In this document: one piece after another, positions 2-7,760 of the stretch
How the letters are laid out: each line of letters starts with the position of its first letter
Numbering within the stretch: the first letter of the stretch is position 1
From: an uncultured Actinomycetes bacterium
GTDB lineage: Bacteria; Actinomycetota; Thermoleophilia; Solirubrobacterales; 70-9
Direction of reading: 5' to 3'
Length of the DNA stretch: 11,503 bases
Assembly (NCBI GenBank): GCA_946886425.1
Contig: CAMPIP010000063.1
Coordinates: 1-11,503, forward strand
The notes under the pieces: generated by a model
What the model was told of the DNA's origin: nothing
What the model saw: only the letters and a program-made list of their open reading frames with translations
Databases searched by the model: none
Translations under genes and position numbers: made by a program

Positions 2-946
2 ACACCCCGGAATACCCGATGCGCGCTAGTCGGGTGGGCTCGGAGTTGTGTATACGACCCCGGGGCGGGCCAAGTCCGCGAGCTCGCCCTCACCAACCTC
101 GACAAGGTGCTCTACCCGGCGACCGGGTTCACGAAGGGCGAGCTGATCGAGTGGTACGCGCGGATGGCCGAGGTGCTGCTGCCGCACCTGCGCGGCCGGC
201 CGCTGACGATGAAGCGCTACCCGGACGGGGTCGACGCCGGCCACTTCTACGAGAAGCGTTGCCCGAGCCACCGGCCCGAGTGGGTGCGGACGGCGCGGAT
301 CTGGAGTGACAGCCACAACGAGGAGGTCGAGTACTGCCTGGTCGAGGACCTGCCGACTCTGGTCTGGGCGGCCAACCTCGCCGACGTCGAGCTGCACACC
401 TCGCTCTCGCAGGCGAGCGAGATGGAGCGCCCGACCGCGGTCGTCTTCGACCTCGACCCCGGCGCCCCCGCCGACGTCCTCGACTGCGCCCAGGTGGCGC
501 TCTGGATCCGCGGCATGTTCGAGCAGCTCGGCCTGCGCTGCTACCCGAAGACCTCGGGCTCGAAGGGGATCCAGGTCTACGTGCCGCTCAACACCGAGGT
601 CACCTACGAGCAGACCAAGCCGTTCGCCAAAGCCGTCGCCGAGACGCTGGAGGCGAAGTTCGGCGAGCGGGTCGTCTCGCGGATGACCAAGGCCAAGCGG
701 GCCGGCAAGGTCTTGGTCGACTGGAGCCAGAACGACCGCCACAAGACGACCGTCTGCGTCTACTCGCTGCGCGCCAGGGAGCGCCCCACGGTCTCCACCC
801 CGCTCGAGTGGGAGGAGCTGGAGGCGGCCTGCGAGGGCGGCGACGCCGACCGACTCGTCTTCGATCACGCCGCCGTACTGCGCCGCGTCGAGGAGCGCGG
901 CGACCTCTTCGCGGCGCTGCTCGGCGAGAAGCAGGCGCTGCCCTAG
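2..946 (+). CDS. ligD: LigD-type DNA polymerase/primase domain protein, 5' end unresolved
   Basis: This is the archaeo-eukaryotic-primase-like polymerase domain of DNA ligase D, which adds nucleotides to broken DNA ends in Ku-dependent non-homologous end joining. Counting from the first in-frame GTG (107), the catalytic metal-binding pair is FDLDP (D115, D117), a third acidic residue is in VDWSQN (D205), and the nucleotide-binding stretch KTSGSKGIQVYVPL lies at 148-161. The family N-terminus LTNLDKVLYP is read upstream of GTG 107, starting near base 89, so GTG 107 would cut off conserved residues. The frame stays open to base 2 with no ATG, GTG or TTG. Either the start lies before the window, or there is a frameshift or unusual start near 45-70, where codon use looks non-coding. 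No ligase or phosphoesterase domain follows the polymerase domain. Family certain; 5' end uncertain. Confidence 0.85.
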   Translation, partial: TPRNTRCALVGWARSCVYDPGAGQVRELALTNLDKVLYPATGFTKGELIEWYARMAEVLLPHLRGRPLTMKRYPDGVDAGHFYEKRCPSHRPEWVRTARIWSDSHNEEVEYCLVEDLPTLVWAANLADVELHTSLSQASEMERPTAVVFDLDPGAPADVLDCAQVALWIRGMFEQLGLRCYPKTSGSKGIQVYVPLNTEVTYEQTKPFAKAVAETLEAKFGERVVSRMTKAKRAGKVLVDWSQNDRHKTTVCVYSLRARERPTVSTPLEWEELEAACEGGDADRLVFDHAAVLRRVEERGDLFAALLGEKQALP

Positions 947-3620: not shown

Positions 3621-3766
3621 TTTCTCTCTCCCTTTCCCGAATTCGTTATCGACAGGCCGTACAGGCCAGCGCTACCCGGCTTGACATTGTGGCTAAACAT
3701 CTTGTTAGGTGGAGTGGGTATGTCGTAAAAAATGTCCTGCGTCTGGCTCGAATTTCTCACCCGGTA
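3621..3766. promoter_or_regulatory. Divergent intergenic promoter region
   Basis: This 146-bp gap separates the minus-strand zinc-ribbon operon from the plus-strand anti-sigma gene and is visibly richer in A and T than its surroundings. It contains a perfect TTGACA (3681-3686), but the hexamer 18 bp downstream (TTAGGT) is a poor -10. A weaker pair is TTGTTA (3702-3707) and TAAAAA (3726-3731), also 18 bp apart. GGGTAT at 3716-3721 matches a sigma-B/SigF -10, with no matching -35 at the right distance. ACAGGCC occurs twice, 9 bp apart (3652-3658, 3661-3667). Which elements are used cannot be decided from the sequence. Confidence 0.4.
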
Positions 3767-4678
3767 ATGCAAGGCTTCTCGCACGAAGCTCTGATCTACG
3801 AGGACCGCGACGAGTTCCTGGCCGGCACGGTTCCCTTTCTTCGCGCGGGCATCGCGGCCGAAGCGGTGGTCCTGGTCGCGGTGGGCCCGGAGAAGACGGC
3901 ACTGCTTCGGGACGAGCTCGGAGCCGACGTGGAAGCCGTCCAGTTCTTCGACATGCGGACGCTCGGCCGCAACCCGGCCCGGCTGATCCCGTTCTGGCGC
4001 CAGTTCATCGACGCCCAGGGCGAGCGGCCGGGCCGCGGCGTCGGCGAACCGGTCTGGCCCGGCCGCACCCCCGCGGAGATCGACGAGTGCGAGCGTCACG
4101 AGGCGCTGCTCAACCTCGCCTTCGGCGGCGACCGCGAGTGGTCGATGCGCTGCCCCTACGACGGCGCCGCGCTGACCGACGCCGTGCTGGACGGGGTCGC
4201 TCGCTCCCACCCTCACCTCCACCGCTACGGCGAGTCCCGAGCCAGCGGCAGCTTCCTCGCCGAGTCCGACTGCTTCGCGGGGGCGCTCCCGGCACGCCCG
4301 CCCGTGGTCGCCAGCTTCCAGTTCGGCCGGGCCGACCTGCACAAGGTGCGGAGCTGGGTCGGGCACGCCGCCTGCGACGCCGGGATGCCGACCGGGGAAG
4401 CCGCCGACCTGGTCGCCGGTGCCAGCGAGGTGGCTGCCAACAGCATCGCCTACGGCGGGGGCGGCGGCAGCCTCCACATCTGGCGGGACCCGGCCGGGAT
4501 CGTGGTCGAGATCGCCGACGCGGGGAGGATCGAGCAGCCGCTGGCCGGCCGGGTCCGGCCGGCGCCGTCGCAGCAGCGCGGCCGCGGCCTCTGGCTCGCC
4601 AACCAGCTCTGCGACCTGGTCCAGATCCGCTCCGACGCGGGCGGGACGACGGTGCGGTTGCGCGGCAACCTGGCCTGA
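3767..4678 (+). CDS. MEDS-domain / HATPase anti-sigma regulator, RsbA-like
   Basis: A 303-aa two-domain regulator. Residues 5-160 match the MEDS (DcmR-type sensory) domain: HEALIYEDRDEFLAG at the start, then VGPEKTALLRDEL, VQFFDMRTLGRNPARLIPFW, and HEALLNLAF. Residues 180-303 are a GHKL ATPase of the anti-sigma serine kinase kind. It shows an N box (E221, N225 in SEVAANSIAYGGGG), a G1 box (D251-A-G253) and a G2 box (GRGLWLANQL, 272-281). There is no phosphoacceptor-histidine dimerisation helix, so it is not an ordinary sensor kinase. Such proteins are thought to phosphorylate or bind anti-sigma antagonists or sigma factors in response to a sensed signal. ATG 3767 was chosen because homology starts there; no good Shine-Dalgarno sequence is seen. 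No sigma factor or antagonist gene lies beside it, so its target is probably elsewhere. Confidence 0.82.
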   Translation: MQGFSHEALIYEDRDEFLAGTVPFLRAGIAAEAVVLVAVGPEKTALLRDELGADVEAVQFFDMRTLGRNPARLIPFWRQFIDAQGERPGRGVGEPVWPGRTPAEIDECERHEALLNLAFGGDREWSMRCPYDGAALTDAVLDGVARSHPHLHRYGESRASGSFLAESDCFAGALPARPPVVASFQFGRADLHKVRSWVGHAACDAGMPTGEAADLVAGASEVAANSIAYGGGGGSLHIWRDPAGIVVEIADAGRIEQPLAGRVRPAPSQQRGRGLWLANQLCDLVQIRSDAGGTTVRLRGNLA

Positions 4679-4691
4679 GCCGAGCGCTCGT

Positions 4692-5351
4692 TCAGCTCGC
4701 GGGCGCGTCGCCGTAGATCGCCCGCACCCAGATCTCGACGAGGACGTCGAGGACCTCGTCCTCGGGCAGCGACGGCTGCTCGGCGGCGAAGCTGGCGTAC
4801 TGAGCGCGCTCGTTCATCTGCACCAGGGCGATCGCCAGGTCGCGGGCCGGTTTGCCGGCGGGGGCGGCGCCGCGGGCTCGCTCGGCCTCGACGATCGCGG
4901 TGACGTCGTCGACCCAGCCTTCCATCACCTGCGACCAGAGCTGGCGCGCCTCGGGATTGGTGGCGCGCAGCTCGGCCCCGGCCAGGGTCAGCGAGCGGTG
5001 GGCGCGGAAGGCCTCGTAGAAGGCTTCGATCCCCTCGCGCCAGCCGGCCCGGGGGTCCTCGGCGAGCTTCGCCACCGCCGCCTCGCGGCCGCCCTTCGCC
5101 TCCTCGACGAGGCGGTCGATCAGGGTCAGCACCACCGCGTCCTTGGAGGGGAAGTAGAAGTAGAAGGTGGGGCGGGAGATGCCGGCGCCGCGAGCGAGGT
5201 CGTCGACCGAGATCTCGTTCAGCGGCCGTTCTTCGATCAGCCGTTCGGCGGTGGCGAGGATCTCCCGCTCGCGGTCGTCGCCGCTGGCGCGCGGCGCGCG
5301 GCGGCCGCGGCTCGTCTCGGGGGCGGTGGCGGTGGCGGAGCGGCTTGGCAT
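4692..5351 (-). CDS. ethR: EthR-like TetR-family transcriptional repressor
   Basis: A 219-aa TetR-family repressor strongly resembling mycobacterial EthR along its whole length. Shared stretches, as I recall EthR, include ASGDDRE, ISVDDLARGAGISRPTFYFYFPSK (DNA-binding helix-turn-helix, residues 47-70), AERARGAAP, MNERAQYASFA and EIWVRAIYG. The ligand tunnel keeps the equivalents of EthR N179 (N180) and W207 (W208), while the equivalent of N176 is Val177, so ligand preference may differ. ATG 5351 was chosen over GTG 5366 because a -10-like hexamer ends 6 bases before this ATG. The gene is divergent from the SDR/ethA operon, and the operator array lies between them. The convergent stop of the anti-sigma gene is 13 bp away, next to a 10-bp palindrome (4681-4690). 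Confidence 0.9.
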   Translation of the reverse strand: MPSRSATATAPETSRGRRAPRASGDDREREILATAERLIEERPLNEISVDDLARGAGISRPTFYFYFPSKDAVVLTLIDRLVEEAKGGREAAVAKLAEDPRAGWREGIEAFYEAFRAHRSLTLAGAELRATNPEARQLWSQVMEGWVDDVTAIVEAERARGAAPAGKPARDLAIALVQMNERAQYASFAAEQPSLPEDEVLDVLVEIWVRAIYGDAPAS

Positions 5352-5357
5352 CGCTCC

Positions 5358-5386
5358 ACCGTACACGCCGTCGAGCGCCTCGACAA
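5358..5386 (-). promoter_or_regulatory. Predicted ethR promoter, possibly leaderless
   Basis: On the minus strand, TTGTCG (5386-5381) and TACGGT (5363-5358) are separated by exactly 17 bp. TACGGT fits the actinobacterial -10 pattern TANNNT and ends 6 bases before the ethR ATG (5351), so transcription may start at or next to the start codon. A GGTGGAG run also sits there, so an ordinary ribosome site cannot be excluded. The two ethR-proximal operator half-sites (5370 and 5380) fall within this promoter, which suggests autorepression. Confidence 0.5.
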
Positions 5387-5414
5387 GAAGTTGACAGACT
5401 CAACACTGTGTTGA
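5370..5414. promoter_or_regulatory. Predicted EthR operator: five alternating half-sites at 10-bp spacing
   Basis: Five 5-bp half-sites start at 5370 (GTCGA), 5380 (TCGAC), 5390 (GTTGA), 5400 (TCAAC) and 5410 (GTTGA). They alternate in orientation with an exact 10-bp period, so all face one side of the helix. The last two form a perfect 15-bp palindrome (5400-5414, centre 5407). The array overlaps both divergent promoters. As I remember it, the 55-bp M. tuberculosis EthR operator has the same alternating GTCGA/GTTGA pattern at the same period, which fits cooperative binding by several EthR dimers. The pattern is seen directly; its function is inferred. Confidence 0.75.
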
Positions 5415-5420
5415 TAGGTT
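5391..5420 (+). promoter_or_regulatory. Predicted promoter of the SDR-ethA operon, leaderless
   Basis: A consensus -35 TTGACA (5391-5396) and a TANNNT-type -10 TAGGTT (5415-5420) are separated by 18 bp. The -10 ends 7 bases before the SDR ATG (5428), and no Shine-Dalgarno sequence lies between, so the mRNA probably starts at or within a base or two of the ATG. The 15-bp operator palindrome occupies most of the spacer, so bound EthR would directly block RNA polymerase. Confidence 0.65.
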
Positions 5421-5427
5421 GGCGGCG

Positions 5428-6252
5428 ATGGCCGAGCGAGTCCTGATCACCGGCGCCGCCAGCGGCATCGGCGCCGCCACCGCCGCGGAGCTGCGCGGGC
5501 GCGGGGCCGAGGTCGTCGGCCTCGATCTCAACGCCGGTGGTGACGTCGCCGCCTGCGACGTCACCGACCAGGCCTCGGTCGCCGCCTGCGACGTCACCGA
5601 CCAGGCCTCGGTCGACGCCGCGGTCGCCGCCGCGGTGGAGAAGCTCGGCGGCCTCGACGCGCTCGTCAACTGCGCCGGGATCGGCATCCCCCAGAGCGCC
5701 GCCCAGCGTCCCGACGCCGACGCGGCCCGGGTCCTCGACGTCAACCTGCTCGGCACCTGGCGGGTCACCGCCGCGGCGCTGCCGGCCCTGCGCGAGTCGC
5801 GCGGCCGCGTCGTCAACATCTCCTCCGGGCTCGCCTACCTGGCGGTCCCCTTCGCCTCCGCCTACGGCGCCAGCAAGCGCGGCGTCGTCGGCTACTCCGA
5901 CCAGCTGCGCTCCGAGGTCGGCGACGAGGTGACGGTGACGACGGTCTACCCCGGCTACGTCCGCACCCCGATCCACGACGCCGGCAAGGCGCTCGGCGTG
6001 CAGCTCGAGGGCATGGTGCCGCCGGAGCCGGTCGGGGCCGTGGTGGCGACGATCGTCCGCGCCCTCTACGGCAAGCCGGCTCGCGACCTGGCGACCACCC
6101 GGCGCGGCACGGTCAGCTACGCGGCGCTGCGGCTGCTGCCCAAGTCCGTGGTCGAGAAGGCGATCCGGCGCCAGGTCGAGAAGGCCGCCCGCCGCGGCCG
6201 CTTCGGCGAGAGCCCGATGACCGCCGACCTGCTGGGGCGGGTGGGCCGGTGA
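5428..6252 (+). CDS. Short-chain dehydrogenase/reductase (SDR), with internal duplication
   Basis: A 274-aa classical SDR, an NAD(P)-dependent oxidoreductase of alcohols and ketones. It has the dinucleotide-binding TGAASGIG (8-15), Asp33 at the end of the second strand (usually NAD preference), NCAG (81-84), Asn106, Ser133 and the catalytic YGASK (Tyr146, Lys150). The C-terminal extension rich in Arg/Lys (after about 235) is common in actinobacterial SDRs linked to monooxygenases. Residues 40-50 and 51-61 are identical copies of an 11-residue segment (see the repeat entry), placed just after the cofactor-binding Asp. ATG 5428 was chosen from the leaderless promoter; TTG 5419 is the only nearby alternative. 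Its TGA overlaps the monooxygenase GTG by 4 bp, so translation is probably coupled. A likely role is making the ketone used by the next enzyme; the substrate is unknown. Confidence 0.88.
   Translation: MAERVLITGAASGIGAATAAELRGRGAEVVGLDLNAGGDVAACDVTDQASVAACDVTDQASVDAAVAAAVEKLGGLDALVNCAGIGIPQSAAQRPDADAARVLDVNLLGTWRVTAAALPALRESRGRVVNISSGLAYLAVPFASAYGASKRGVVGYSDQLRSEVGDEVTVTTVYPGYVRTPIHDAGKALGVQLEGMVPPEPVGAVVATIVRALYGKPARDLATTRRGTVSYAALRLLPKSVVEKAIRRQVEKAARRGRFGESPMTADLLGRVGR
5545..5610 (+). repeat. Perfect 33-bp tandem duplication inside the SDR gene
   Basis: Bases 5545-5577 and 5578-5610 are identical, encoding VAACDVTDQAS twice in frame. Typical SDRs have only one DVTD segment between the second and third cofactor-binding elements, so this adds 11 residues to the Rossmann core. 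The absence of even silent differences points to a recent event or an assembly artefact. Confidence 0.95.
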
Positions 6253-7760
6253 GCGCCGCGACCGAGAAGGGGCTCGAGCACGTCGACGTGCTGATCGTCG
6301 GCGCCGGGCTCTCCGGCGTCGGTGCCGCCTGCGTCCTGCGGAAGCAGATGCCCGGCAAGAGCTTCGCGATCCTCGAGGCGCGCGACGCGATCGGCGGCAC
6401 CTGGGACCTCTTCCGCTACCCCGGCATCCGCTCCGATTCCGACATGTTCACGCTCGGCTACTCCTTCCGGCCCTGGGAGGACAGCAAGGCGATCGCCGAT
6501 GGCCCCTCGATCCTCCGCTACGTCCGCGAGACCGCCCGCGAGTACGGGGTCGAGGAGCGAGTCCGCTTCGGCCACAGGGTGGTGAGCGCCGACTGGTCGA
6601 GCGAGCAGGCGCGCTGGACCGTGACCGCCGAGCGCACCGACACCGGCGAGCAGGTCCAGCTCACCGCCGGCTTCCTCTACGGCTGCACCGGCTACTACCG
6701 CTACGACCAGGGCTACACCCCGGAGTTCCCCGGCATCGATGGCTTCGGCGGCCAGGTGATCCACCCCCAGCATTGGCCCGAGGGGCTCGACTACGCCGGC
6801 AAGCGGGTGGTCGTGATCGGCAGCGGCGCCACCGCCGTCACCCTCGTCCCCTCGATGGCCGAGAAGGCCGCCAAGGTGACGATGCTGCAGCGCTCGCCGA
6901 CCTACATCGCCACCCTGCCGGCCACCGACCGGCTCGCCACCGGGCTGCGGCGCTTCCTCCCCGAGCGAGCCGTCTACGCGATCGTGCGCTGGAAGAACGT
7001 CGGCCGGATGATGCTCAGCTACCAGCTCTCCCGCCGCGCCCCGAAGCTGATGCGGCGGGTGCTGCGCAAGGGCGTGGAGATGCAGACGCCCGACGGCTAC
7101 GACGTCGGCACCCACTTCGAACCGCGCTACGACCCCTGGGACGAGCGCCTCTGTCTGGTCCCCGACGGCGACCTCTTCCGGTCCCTGCGCCAGGGCAAGG
7201 CGGAGATCGTCACCGACCGGATCGAGACCTTCACCGAGACCGGCATCCGCCTCCACTCCGGCCGCGAGCTCGAGGCCGACATCGTCGTCACCGCCACGGG
7301 GCTCAACCTGCTGCTGATCGGCGGGATCGAGCCGAGCATCAACGGCGAGGCCGTCGACATGTCCCAGGCGGTCGGCTACAAGGGGATGATGTTCGGCGGG
7401 ATCCCGAACATGGCGATCGCGCTCGGCTACACCAACGCCTCCTGGACGCTGAAGTGCGACCTCGTCGCCGAGTACGTCTGCCGCCTGCTCGCTCATATGG
7501 ACGCGAACGGCTATCGCGTCGCCACCCCGCGGGCCCCCGACCCCTCGCAGCCGACCGATCCCTTCATCGACCTCAGGTCCGGCTACGTGATGCGCTCGAT
7601 CGACCAGCTGCCCAAACAGGGCGCCACCCATCCCTGGCGCCTGCACCAGAACTACCCGAAGGACATCCGCCTGCTCAAGCGCGGCCCGGTCGACGACCAG
7701 ATGGACTTCGCGCGCGCCCCGGTCCCCGCCCCCGCCGAGGAGCCGGTCGCCGCCGCGTAG
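6249..7760 (+). CDS. ethA: EthA-type FAD-dependent Baeyer-Villiger monooxygenase
   Basis: A 503-aa flavoprotein monooxygenase that uses FAD, NADPH and O2 to insert oxygen next to a ketone carbonyl; the mycobacterial relative EthA also S-oxidises thioamides such as ethionamide. Motifs in order are the FAD Rossmann GAGLSG (18-23), GGTWDLFRYPGIRSDSDM (49-66), the Baeyer-Villiger fingerprint FGGQVIHPQHW (166-176), the NADPH Rossmann GSGATA (191-196) and ATG (349-351). Blocks such as VTMLQRSPTYI, LCLVPDGDLFR, GYTNASWTLK and PKQGATHPWRLHQNYPKDIRL match EthA closely as I remember it. Length is close to the 489 aa of EthA. GTG 6249 overlaps the SDR stop. The gene is thus controlled from the EthR-operator promoter upstream of the SDR, and a stem-loop follows 12 bp after the stop. 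Confidence 0.9.
   Translation: MSAATEKGLEHVDVLIVGAGLSGVGAACVLRKQMPGKSFAILEARDAIGGTWDLFRYPGIRSDSDMFTLGYSFRPWEDSKAIADGPSILRYVRETAREYGVEERVRFGHRVVSADWSSEQARWTVTAERTDTGEQVQLTAGFLYGCTGYYRYDQGYTPEFPGIDGFGGQVIHPQHWPEGLDYAGKRVVVIGSGATAVTLVPSMAEKAAKVTMLQRSPTYIATLPATDRLATGLRRFLPERAVYAIVRWKNVGRMMLSYQLSRRAPKLMRRVLRKGVEMQTPDGYDVGTHFEPRYDPWDERLCLVPDGDLFRSLRQGKAEIVTDRIETFTETGIRLHSGRELEADIVVTATGLNLLLIGGIEPSINGEAVDMSQAVGYKGMMFGGIPNMAIALGYTNASWTLKCDLVAEYVCRLLAHMDANGYRVATPRAPDPSQPTDPFIDLRSGYVMRSIDQLPKQGATHPWRLHQNYPKDIRLLKRGPVDDQMDFARAPVPAPAEEPVAAA

What the first reader, a model, noticed from the sequence alone, without database searches (positions are those of the whole stretch)
5370..5414. EthR operator architecture conserved outside mycobacteria
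Five half-sites (GTCGA, TCGAC, GTTGA, TCAAC, GTTGA) start at 5370, 5380, 5390, 5400 and 5410, alternating in orientation at an exact 10-bp period between an EthR homologue and its targets. My memory of the M. tuberculosis ethA-ethR operator gives the same word set and period, ending in the same TTGATAG. If right, operator and regulator have co-evolved over a very large distance, and cooperative multi-dimer binding is an ancestral property of this regulator. The array spans both divergent promoters.
Basis: partly seen in the sequence, partly recalled or inferred. Interest (0 to 1): 0.85.

Follow-up and report, generated by a model that had tools for sequence, protein, structure and literature searches.

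The report
Conserved EthR operator in distant bacteria
The DNA switch that the regulator EthR uses to shut off the ethA gene in mycobacteria is present, word for word in its half-sites, in this only distantly related bacterium, and comparison across species suggests that it is a row of simple 15-base mirror-image sites built into the gene's promoter.

Summary
Confirmed and extended. Five half-sites (GTYGA/TCRAC) lie at 5370, 5380, 5390, 5400 and 5410 (25 of 25 letters; at most 21 in 1000 whole-window shuffles). The gene at 4692-5351(-) is an EthR homologue (55% identical to M. tuberculosis EthR; Pfam EthR_C). The + strand carries an SDR gene and then an EthA-like monooxygenase gene. Among 128 distinct EthR loci, a matrix trained on mycobacteria alone scores the window site 41.9 (next best -12.8) and finds strong sites in 57 of 97 other loci, Nannocystis included, 56 of them in the ethR/ethA promoter region. 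The site follows ethA when gene order changes. The half-sites need re-pairing: the rigid unit is the 15-bp palindrome TCRAC-N5-GTYGA (218 pairs 10 bp apart, 4 at 11), repeated every 20-21 bp. The window has two (5380-5394, 5400-5414) plus a fifth half-site by the ethR promoter. One half-site doubles as a -35 box; a -10 box abuts the array 7 nt before the ATG (leaderless mRNA predicted). The recognition helix is almost invariant: co-conservation, not visible co-evolution. Patchy distribution leaves ancient transfer open. Binding and cooperativity were not tested. New member of a known kind.

The parts
4692..5351 (-). EthR homologue (TetR family, EthR_C domain), 219 aa; ATG at 5351 preferred to GTG 5366 (judgement)
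   Evidence: PDB EthR 241.6 bits; Pfam EthR_C 152.9 bits, cut-off 27; recognition helix SRPTFYFYF the same as in M. tuberculosis EthR
5400..5414 (.). operator palindrome 1, TCAACACTGTGTTGA (perfect except its centre), next to the predicted -10 box of the SDR-monooxygenase operon
   Evidence: 0 mismatches; register
5380..5394 (.). operator palindrome 2, TCGACAAGAAGTTGA, 20 bp from palindrome 1
   Evidence: 0 mismatches; register
5370..5374 (.). fifth half-site GTCGA; its partner position 5360-5364 (CGTAC) is degenerate and overlaps the predicted ethR -10 box
   Evidence: this outer half-site is less conserved in relatives than the inner four (0.6-1.1 bits against mostly 1.7-2.0)
5391..5396 (+). 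predicted -35 box TTGACA, inside the half-site at 5390; spacer 18 bp
   Evidence: TTGACN at this place in 65 of the 71 divergent loci that have a terminal half-site plus TAnnnT; 41 further divergent loci lack that strict register; a generic sigma-70 scan found no promoter
5415..5420 (+). predicted -10 box TAGGTT (TAnnnT), directly after the terminal half-site, 7 nt before the ATG
   Evidence: TAnnnT in this register in 67 of 72 cores, at most 5 at any other shift; 7 nt to start
5358..5363 (-). predicted ethR -10 box TACGGT, 6 nt before the ethR ATG
   Evidence: read; in the alignment TAnnnT is present in 22 of 22 rows, 18 in this register and 4 shifted by one base (my reading of the rows)
5428..6252 (+). 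short-chain dehydrogenase gene, first gene of the presumed operon
   Evidence: Pfam adh_short 154.6 bits; 70-71% identical SDR in the same place in L001 and L002
6249..7760 (+). EthA-like flavin monooxygenase, start overlaps the SDR stop by 4 bp
   Evidence: Pfam FMO-like 54.1 bits, cut-off 22; 55-68% identical to the monooxygenase next to ethR in the loci with long alignments; sequence FGGQVIHPQHWP fits the recalled Baeyer-Villiger fingerprint FxGxxxHxxxWP

Best explanation
The array is the operator of the EthR homologue beside it. EthR dimers bind 15-bp palindromes TCRAC-N5-GTYGA placed 20 bp (about two helical turns) apart, so that neighbouring dimers lie on nearly the same face of the DNA and can touch. 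The sites are built into the promoter of the SDR-monooxygenase operon (one half-site is the -35 box, the array ends at the -10 box) and reach the ethR promoter on the other strand, so a bound array shuts both promoters by blocking RNA polymerase. A small ligand of the EthR pocket would release it. Shown here: sequence, register, conservation, linkage to ethA-like genes, promoter-like elements in fixed register. Inferred: binding, repression of both genes, autoregulation, cooperativity, ligand release, leaderless transcripts.
For: (1) EthR homologue adjacent. (2) Matrix from 29 distinct mycobacterial sites (31 loci): window best 41.9, next -12.8; 57 of 97 non-training loci score over 15, and 56 of these 57 best sites lie in the ethR-upstream or ethA-promoter region; the other (L062) lies upstream of an SDR-ethR gene pair. 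(3) Perfect R-F palindromes: 218 in 61.8 kb inside these regions against 8 in 913 kb outside. (4) 116 of 117 loci with an ethA-like gene have at least one; 4 of 11 without it. (5) The site follows the target: Nannocystis L045 and L057 have it at the monooxygenase-SDR junction about 975 bp from ethR; L131, L144, L149, L153 and L156 have it between ethR and a downstream monooxygenase gene. (6) In 10 of 10 genomes searched with a sequence-only model the best hit is the operator at the EthR locus; sites of 4 of these 10 genomes were in the model. (7) Recognition helix: 110 of 114 rows read RPTFYFYF. (8) M. tuberculosis EthR is described as repressing both divergent genes and binding cooperatively as an octamer (PMC5403819 passages); published ethA promoter changes at -11 and -7 fall on the two invariant bases of the -10 box defined here, and the one at -11 was shown not to act through ethR (PMC5700317 passages).
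Against: No binding or expression data exist for this protein. 31 Micromonospora-type loci (23 named Micromonospora, 8 unnamed that group with them) score -8 to 8 with the strict matrix; 29 of them have two perfect palindromes 21 bp apart, two (L008, L044) have one of the pair with a mismatch. L110, L112 and L123 (EthR 53-57% identical, no ethA-like gene within the 1.5 kb held) lack a perfect palindrome, and L130 has only a loose run; these four and L120 still have the RPTFYFYF helix, so the helix does not tell operator-bearing loci from the others. Distant EthR-like proteins (36-44% identical: L108, L119, L120) have no perfect palindrome upstream. L066 has an ethA-like gene but no perfect palindrome. 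The generic promoter scan found nothing in 5300-5500. Many loci come from a few genera, so they are not independent, and all were chosen by likeness to the window's EthR.
Confidence: 0.88

Rival explanations
1. The conservation is that of the divergent promoters, not of an operator: TTGAC and TAnnnT are kept for RNA polymerase and the other half-sites are by-products.
For: Half-site 5390 is the predicted -35 box and the array abuts the -10 box; the variable position is A/T-type in 96% at the -35 half-site and 87% at the terminal one, against 37-45% at the other two inner half-sites.
Against: The second and fourth half-sites of the profile are as invariant at their fixed letters as the -35 half-site but are not promoter boxes. 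In Nannocystis the terminal half-site plus TAnnnT was not found while the half-sites remain. Palindromes are kept at 21-bp spacing in Micromonospora.
Confidence: 0.05
2. The unit is the convergent pair GTYGA-N5-TCRAC (F-R), or five equal half-sites at a 10-bp period, with EthR bound along a continuous half-site ladder.
For: In the window and in the 22 aligned operators both kinds of pair are exactly 10 bp apart; the published octamer (PMC5403819 passages) exceeds two or three dimers.
Against: R-to-F distances: 4 at 8, 218 at 10, 4 at 11, 1 at 13, 2 at 14; F-to-R: 126 at 10, 65 at 11, 4 at 12, 5 at 13, 2 at 14 (GTCGAC can be read both ways, which adds some of the 11s). R-F spacers are palindromically biased (1.09 and 1.53 bits at the ends), F-R spacers less (0.55 and 0.43).
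Confidence: 0.12
3. The likeness to the mycobacterial operator reflects recent horizontal transfer of the ethR-ethA cassette from mycobacteria, not long conservation.
For: Patchy presence, each count including the genome that centred the search: 11 of 399 class-mates of a Solirubrobacterales genome (E 1e-30; three were known before, two are weak), 14 of 396 of its phylum (E 1e-30), 1 of 235 of the Nannocystis phylum (E 1e-25, the centre itself), 1 of 247 of an Acidimicrobiaceae class (E 1e-25, the centre itself), against 92 of 298 in the order of Actinophytocola (E 1e-25).
Against: In a 58-row tree 18 mycobacterial rows (11 named, 7 labelled by their place in the tree) form one side of a branch (100/98) that excludes the window; the window groups with L001 and L002 (98/83) and with L003 and L021 (98/89). 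The window's EthR is only 53-60% identical to the mycobacterial ones while half-sites are identical and spacers randomised. Older transfers between deep lineages are not excluded; deep branches are weakly supported.
Confidence: 0.05
4. Chance arrangement of GC-rich words.
For: Palindromes with one mismatch occur elsewhere in the window (7 matches in all, 1.5 expected, 2 of 200 shuffles as many).
Against: None of 6000 shuffles reached 22 of 25, and the arrangement is conserved in relatives.
Confidence: 0.001

Closest known systems
M. tuberculosis EthR-ethA operator (Engohang-Ndong 2004, not seen; described in PMC5403819 passages)
   Same: Homologous regulator (55% identity), ethA-like gene in the divergent direction, same terminal pair and TTGATAG, same -10 register.
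   Different: Here an SDR gene precedes the monooxygenase; stoichiometry unknown. PMC4482099 calls the EthR motif larger, more complex, multi-copy and not a classical palindrome; the comparison here resolves it into classical 15-bp palindromes in tandem.
TetR-tetA operators
   Same: Dimeric TetR-family repressor on 15-bp palindromes between divergent genes (PMC3511530 passages).
   Different: Two operators in TetR-tetA; the 20-21-bp tandem spacing and the overlap with the -35 box are what is described here; TetR's own word was not compared.
Streptomyces SCO7222-SCO7223 (TetR regulator and divergent monooxygenase; PMC3511530)
   Same: 15-bp palindromes in three copies between a TetR-family repressor and a monooxygenase gene, bound and footprinted (passages).
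   Different: Word TGGAACGNCGTTCCA; whether SCO7222 belongs to the EthR clade was not tested.

Membership tests
EthR regulator | EthR_C ligand-binding domain plus TetR_N | tested here: met
   152.9 and 52.4 bits, cut-offs 27 and 24
EthR regulator | closest solved structures are EthR | tested here: met
   the top eight of 130 matched sequences are EthR at 237-242 bits; the next protein is at 45 bits (60 of 130 shown)
EthR regulator | divergent from an ethA-type monooxygenase gene | tested here: met
   monooxygenase at 6249-7760, second gene of the divergent operon after an SDR gene
EthR operator | half-site array in mycobacterial register | tested here: met
   41.9 against -12.8 for the next place with a matrix trained only on mycobacteria
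EthR operator | bound by EthR, multi-dimer and cooperative | not testable with these tools
   no binding assay; array length is only consistent with it
EthR operator | represses both divergent promoters | not testable with these tools
   position over both predicted promoters only
EthA monooxygenase | FAD/NADPH flavin monooxygenase of the EthA type | tested here: inconclusive
   FMO-like Pfam match and 55-68% identity to ethR-linked monooxygenases in long alignments; not compared with M. tuberculosis EthA itself, no assay
sigma-70-like promoter | -35 and -10 hexamers by a generic consensus | tested here: not met
   0 found in 5300-5500; the TTGACA-18-TAnnnT reading rests on comparative register

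The most novel reading that the evidence does not exclude
The regulator gene, the tandem 15-bp palindromes and the promoter they are built into form one regulatory cassette that was already assembled in the common ancestor of ethA-linked EthRs and has since been carried, by descent and by transfer, across Actinomycetota and into Myxococcota; EthR binds it as stacked dimers two helical turns apart (two or three dimers, not a continuous ladder), which would revise the stoichiometry of a drug-relevant mycobacterial operator.
Probability: 0.55. Interest if true: 0.65.

Novelty: new member of a known kind. Interest (0 to 1): 0.5.

Why it matters
EthR is a drug-discovery target, since inhibiting it boosts ethionamide (PMC13234193 passages), yet its physiological role is described as unknown and its operator as complex (PMC4482099 passages). 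A comparative set across distant bacteria reduces the operator to one simple palindrome, predicts where dimers sit and how many, separates operator from promoter bases, and offers relatives outside mycobacteria as models for asking what EthR-EthA systems are for.

Tried and rejected
Chance was rejected. Half-site ladder and F-R pairing were set aside as the unit because the R-F pair nearly always keeps its 10-bp distance and the F-R junction does not. Promoter-only conservation was rejected as a full explanation (Nannocystis and Micromonospora variants). Recent transfer from mycobacteria was rejected by the tree; deep transfer could not be decided, and the 125-row quick tree had 43 open branches of 122. 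A wider EthR regulon: the sequence-only model gave one strong site per genome in 10 of 10 genomes, each at the EthR locus; the only other place below E 0.01 was in the L006 genome (the tool scored 150 first-look candidates per genome, so weak sites may be missed). A generic promoter scan gave nothing. Loci whose EthR match was under 60 bits (distant TetR genes) were dropped before all counts. Structure prediction was not used: it would add little to a 55% homologue of a solved protein and cannot model DNA. Ten literature searches showed, in the titles and abstract starts listed (searches list 20 of 37, 40 and 24), no description of this operator outside mycobacteria; subscription papers are not held, so this is no proof of novelty. 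A native mass-spectrometry report of up to six EthR subunits on the operator is recalled and was not found. Engohang-Ndong 2004 itself was not seen.

Full report
Observation. The next unrelated place in the window scores 16. Of 1000 whole-window and 5000 regional dinucleotide shuffles none exceeded 21, and no other period from 6 to 15 bp exceeded 19 in the real window. In a first scan of 81 upstream regions, 1620 shuffles reached at most 19.

Setting. The minus-strand gene 4692-5351 is an EthR homologue: the top eight PDB sequences are EthR at 237-242 bits, the next protein is at 45, and Pfam EthR_C matches at 152.9 bits. The plus-strand operon has an SDR gene (5428-6252) overlapping an FMO-type monooxygenase gene (6249-7760). 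L001 and L002 have the same SDR-monooxygenase order; in most other loci the monooxygenase gene begins close to ethR with no such SDR between them.

Conservation. One scan of the species genomes kept 80 of 293 confirmed EthR relatives; further genome searches gave more. After removal of 18 duplicates, and of loci with an EthR match under 60 bits, 128 loci including the window were analysed. A matrix built from 29 distinct mycobacterial sites (31 loci) was run over the 97 others: the window scored 41.9 (next -12.8); 57 scored over 15, of which 56 lay in the ethR-upstream or ethA-promoter region (420 bp upstream of ethR, or within 150 bp of the monooxygenase match start) and one (L062) upstream of an SDR-ethR pair; 40 scored 15 or less. 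Of these 40, 31 are Micromonospora-type (23 named Micromonospora, L007 included, and 8 unnamed that group with them), of which 29 have two perfect palindromes 21 bp apart and two have one of the pair with a mismatch; one is a Mycobacterium locus (L040, 13.5, three half-sites, contig ends upstream); and eight (L107, L108, L110, L112, L119, L120, L123, L130) have no ethA-like gene within the held flanks. Outside the defined regions the highest score apart from L062 was 14.6 (L006, upstream of an ORF that reads like an MFS transporter).

Register. Perfect R-to-F pairs (TCRAC then GTYGA) are 10 bp apart in 218 cases, against 4 at 8, 4 at 11, 1 at 13 and 2 at 14; F-to-R junctions are 10 in 126, 11 in 65, 12 in 4, 13 in 5 and 14 in 2 (the self-complementary GTCGAC inflates some 11s). 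Successive perfect palindromes lie 20 bp apart 63 times, 21 bp 30 times, 22 once, 42 once. Perfect R-F palindromes occur 218 times in 61.8 kb of ethR/ethA promoter regions and 8 times in 913 kb elsewhere; F-R pairs 126 and 43 times. In 62 distinct aligned cores (66 of 109 loci passed the 19-of-20 cut) most fixed half-site letters of the inner four half-sites carry 1.65-2.0 bits and the middle of the spacers about 0; the fifth half-site carries 0.6-1.1 bits. The unit is therefore best read as a 15-bp palindrome, as for TetR, repeated about every two helical turns. In the window the units are 5380-5394 and 5400-5414, and 5370-5374 is half of a third site whose other half overlaps the predicted ethR -10 box.

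Promoter built in. Directly after the terminal half-site comes TAnnnT in 67 of 72 cores, against at most 5 at any other shift. Of 112 divergent loci with an ethA-like gene, 71 have a terminal half-site plus TAnnnT in strict register and 41 do not (mostly Micromonospora; also Nannocystis, Kineococcus and some unnamed). In the 71, TTGACN lies at the third half-site with an 18-bp spacer in 65; the nearest in-frame start codon is 6-9 nt after the -10 box in 52 (7 nt in the window), 18 nt or more in 16, and not found in 3. Leaderless transcripts are thus predicted for the window's group and for the mycobacteria printed in that call, not for the Blastococcus, Modestobacter and Actinophytocola rows printed. 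The generic promoter scan missed this promoter. Two published M. tuberculosis ethA promoter positions (-11 and -7; PMC5700317 passages) fall on the invariant A and T of this -10 box, placed by the primer coordinates in PMC12915838 and a recalled ethA start coordinate; only the -11 change was reported there as tested, and it lowered ethA expression independently of ethR.

The operator follows the target. 116 of 117 loci with an ethA-like gene have a perfect palindrome in the defined regions (exception L066; in L118 the monooxygenase is only 30% identical), and 4 of 11 without one (L040, L043, L107, L130). L062 counts as lacking both because its contig ends and its site lies outside the defined region. 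In 10 of 10 genomes searched with a sequence-only model the best hit was the operator at the EthR locus, with no comparable second site; sites of 4 of these genomes (G001, G002, G490, G764) were in the model.

Protein side. In 114 of 125 aligned EthRs (11 set aside: eight without an ethA-like gene, and L062, L066, L118) the recognition helix reads RPTFYFYF in 110, with four rows differing by one or two residues; the HTH averages 94% conservation against 66% for the remainder. Four paralogues without the array (L110, L112, L123) or with a loose one (L130), and the distant L120, keep the same helix, so it does not by itself predict an adjacent operator. That is joint stasis, not compensating change.

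History. The tree of 58 EthRs keeps 18 mycobacterial rows (11 named, 7 labelled by their place) as one side of a branch (100/98) and puts the window with L001 and L002 (98/83) and L003 and L021 (98/89); ten rows labelled Thermoleophilia (class name recalled; labels from the class search around L001's genome, the window's by grouping) need two changes, and deep branches are weak. EthR matches are patchy: 11 of 399 and 14 of 396 genomes at E 1e-30, 92 of 298, 1 of 235 and 1 of 247 at E 1e-25; each count includes the genome that centred the search, and the last two are only that genome. Recent transfer from mycobacteria is excluded by this tree; ancient transfer is not.

Known work. PMC4482099 (abstract and passages) reports a mycobacterial ethR motif by MEME (logo not seen) and calls the EthR motif complex and non-classical. 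PMC3511530 (passages) gives the TetR and SCO7222 comparisons. PMC5403819 (passages) gives the octamer and two-way repression. In the listings and passages seen, none describes the operator outside mycobacteria.

Limits. All loci were selected by likeness to the window's EthR, many are from the same genera, no genome is held for the window, and binding, cooperativity, transcription starts and ligand are untested.

Noticed in passing
window 5545-5619: 33-bp in-frame tandem duplication (2.3 copies, 97%) inside the SDR gene, giving CDVTDQASV-AACDVTDQASV near the cofactor-binding fold; L001 and L002 have one copy.
   Followed up: partly
L006 240-284: A second EthR-like operator (18.7 bits) near the start of an ORF that reads like an MFS transporter in Blastococcus, about 4.7 kb from the ethR operator: possible second target.
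   Followed up: partly
L130 1336-1425: A second EthR paralogue in the genome of L028 has a loose, AT-rich run of half-sites with 10-11-bp steps upstream and no ethA-like gene in the held flanks.
   Followed up: no
L107 about 1287-1301: A distant EthR-like gene (41% identity) with a single perfect palindrome 67 bp upstream of the match start and no ethA-like gene in the held flanks.
   Followed up: no
window 3689-4678: RsbA-type anti-sigma regulatory protein (MEDS plus HATPase domains) next to ethR.
   Followed up: no
window 107-946: LigD-type primase-polymerase domain protein.
   Followed up: no
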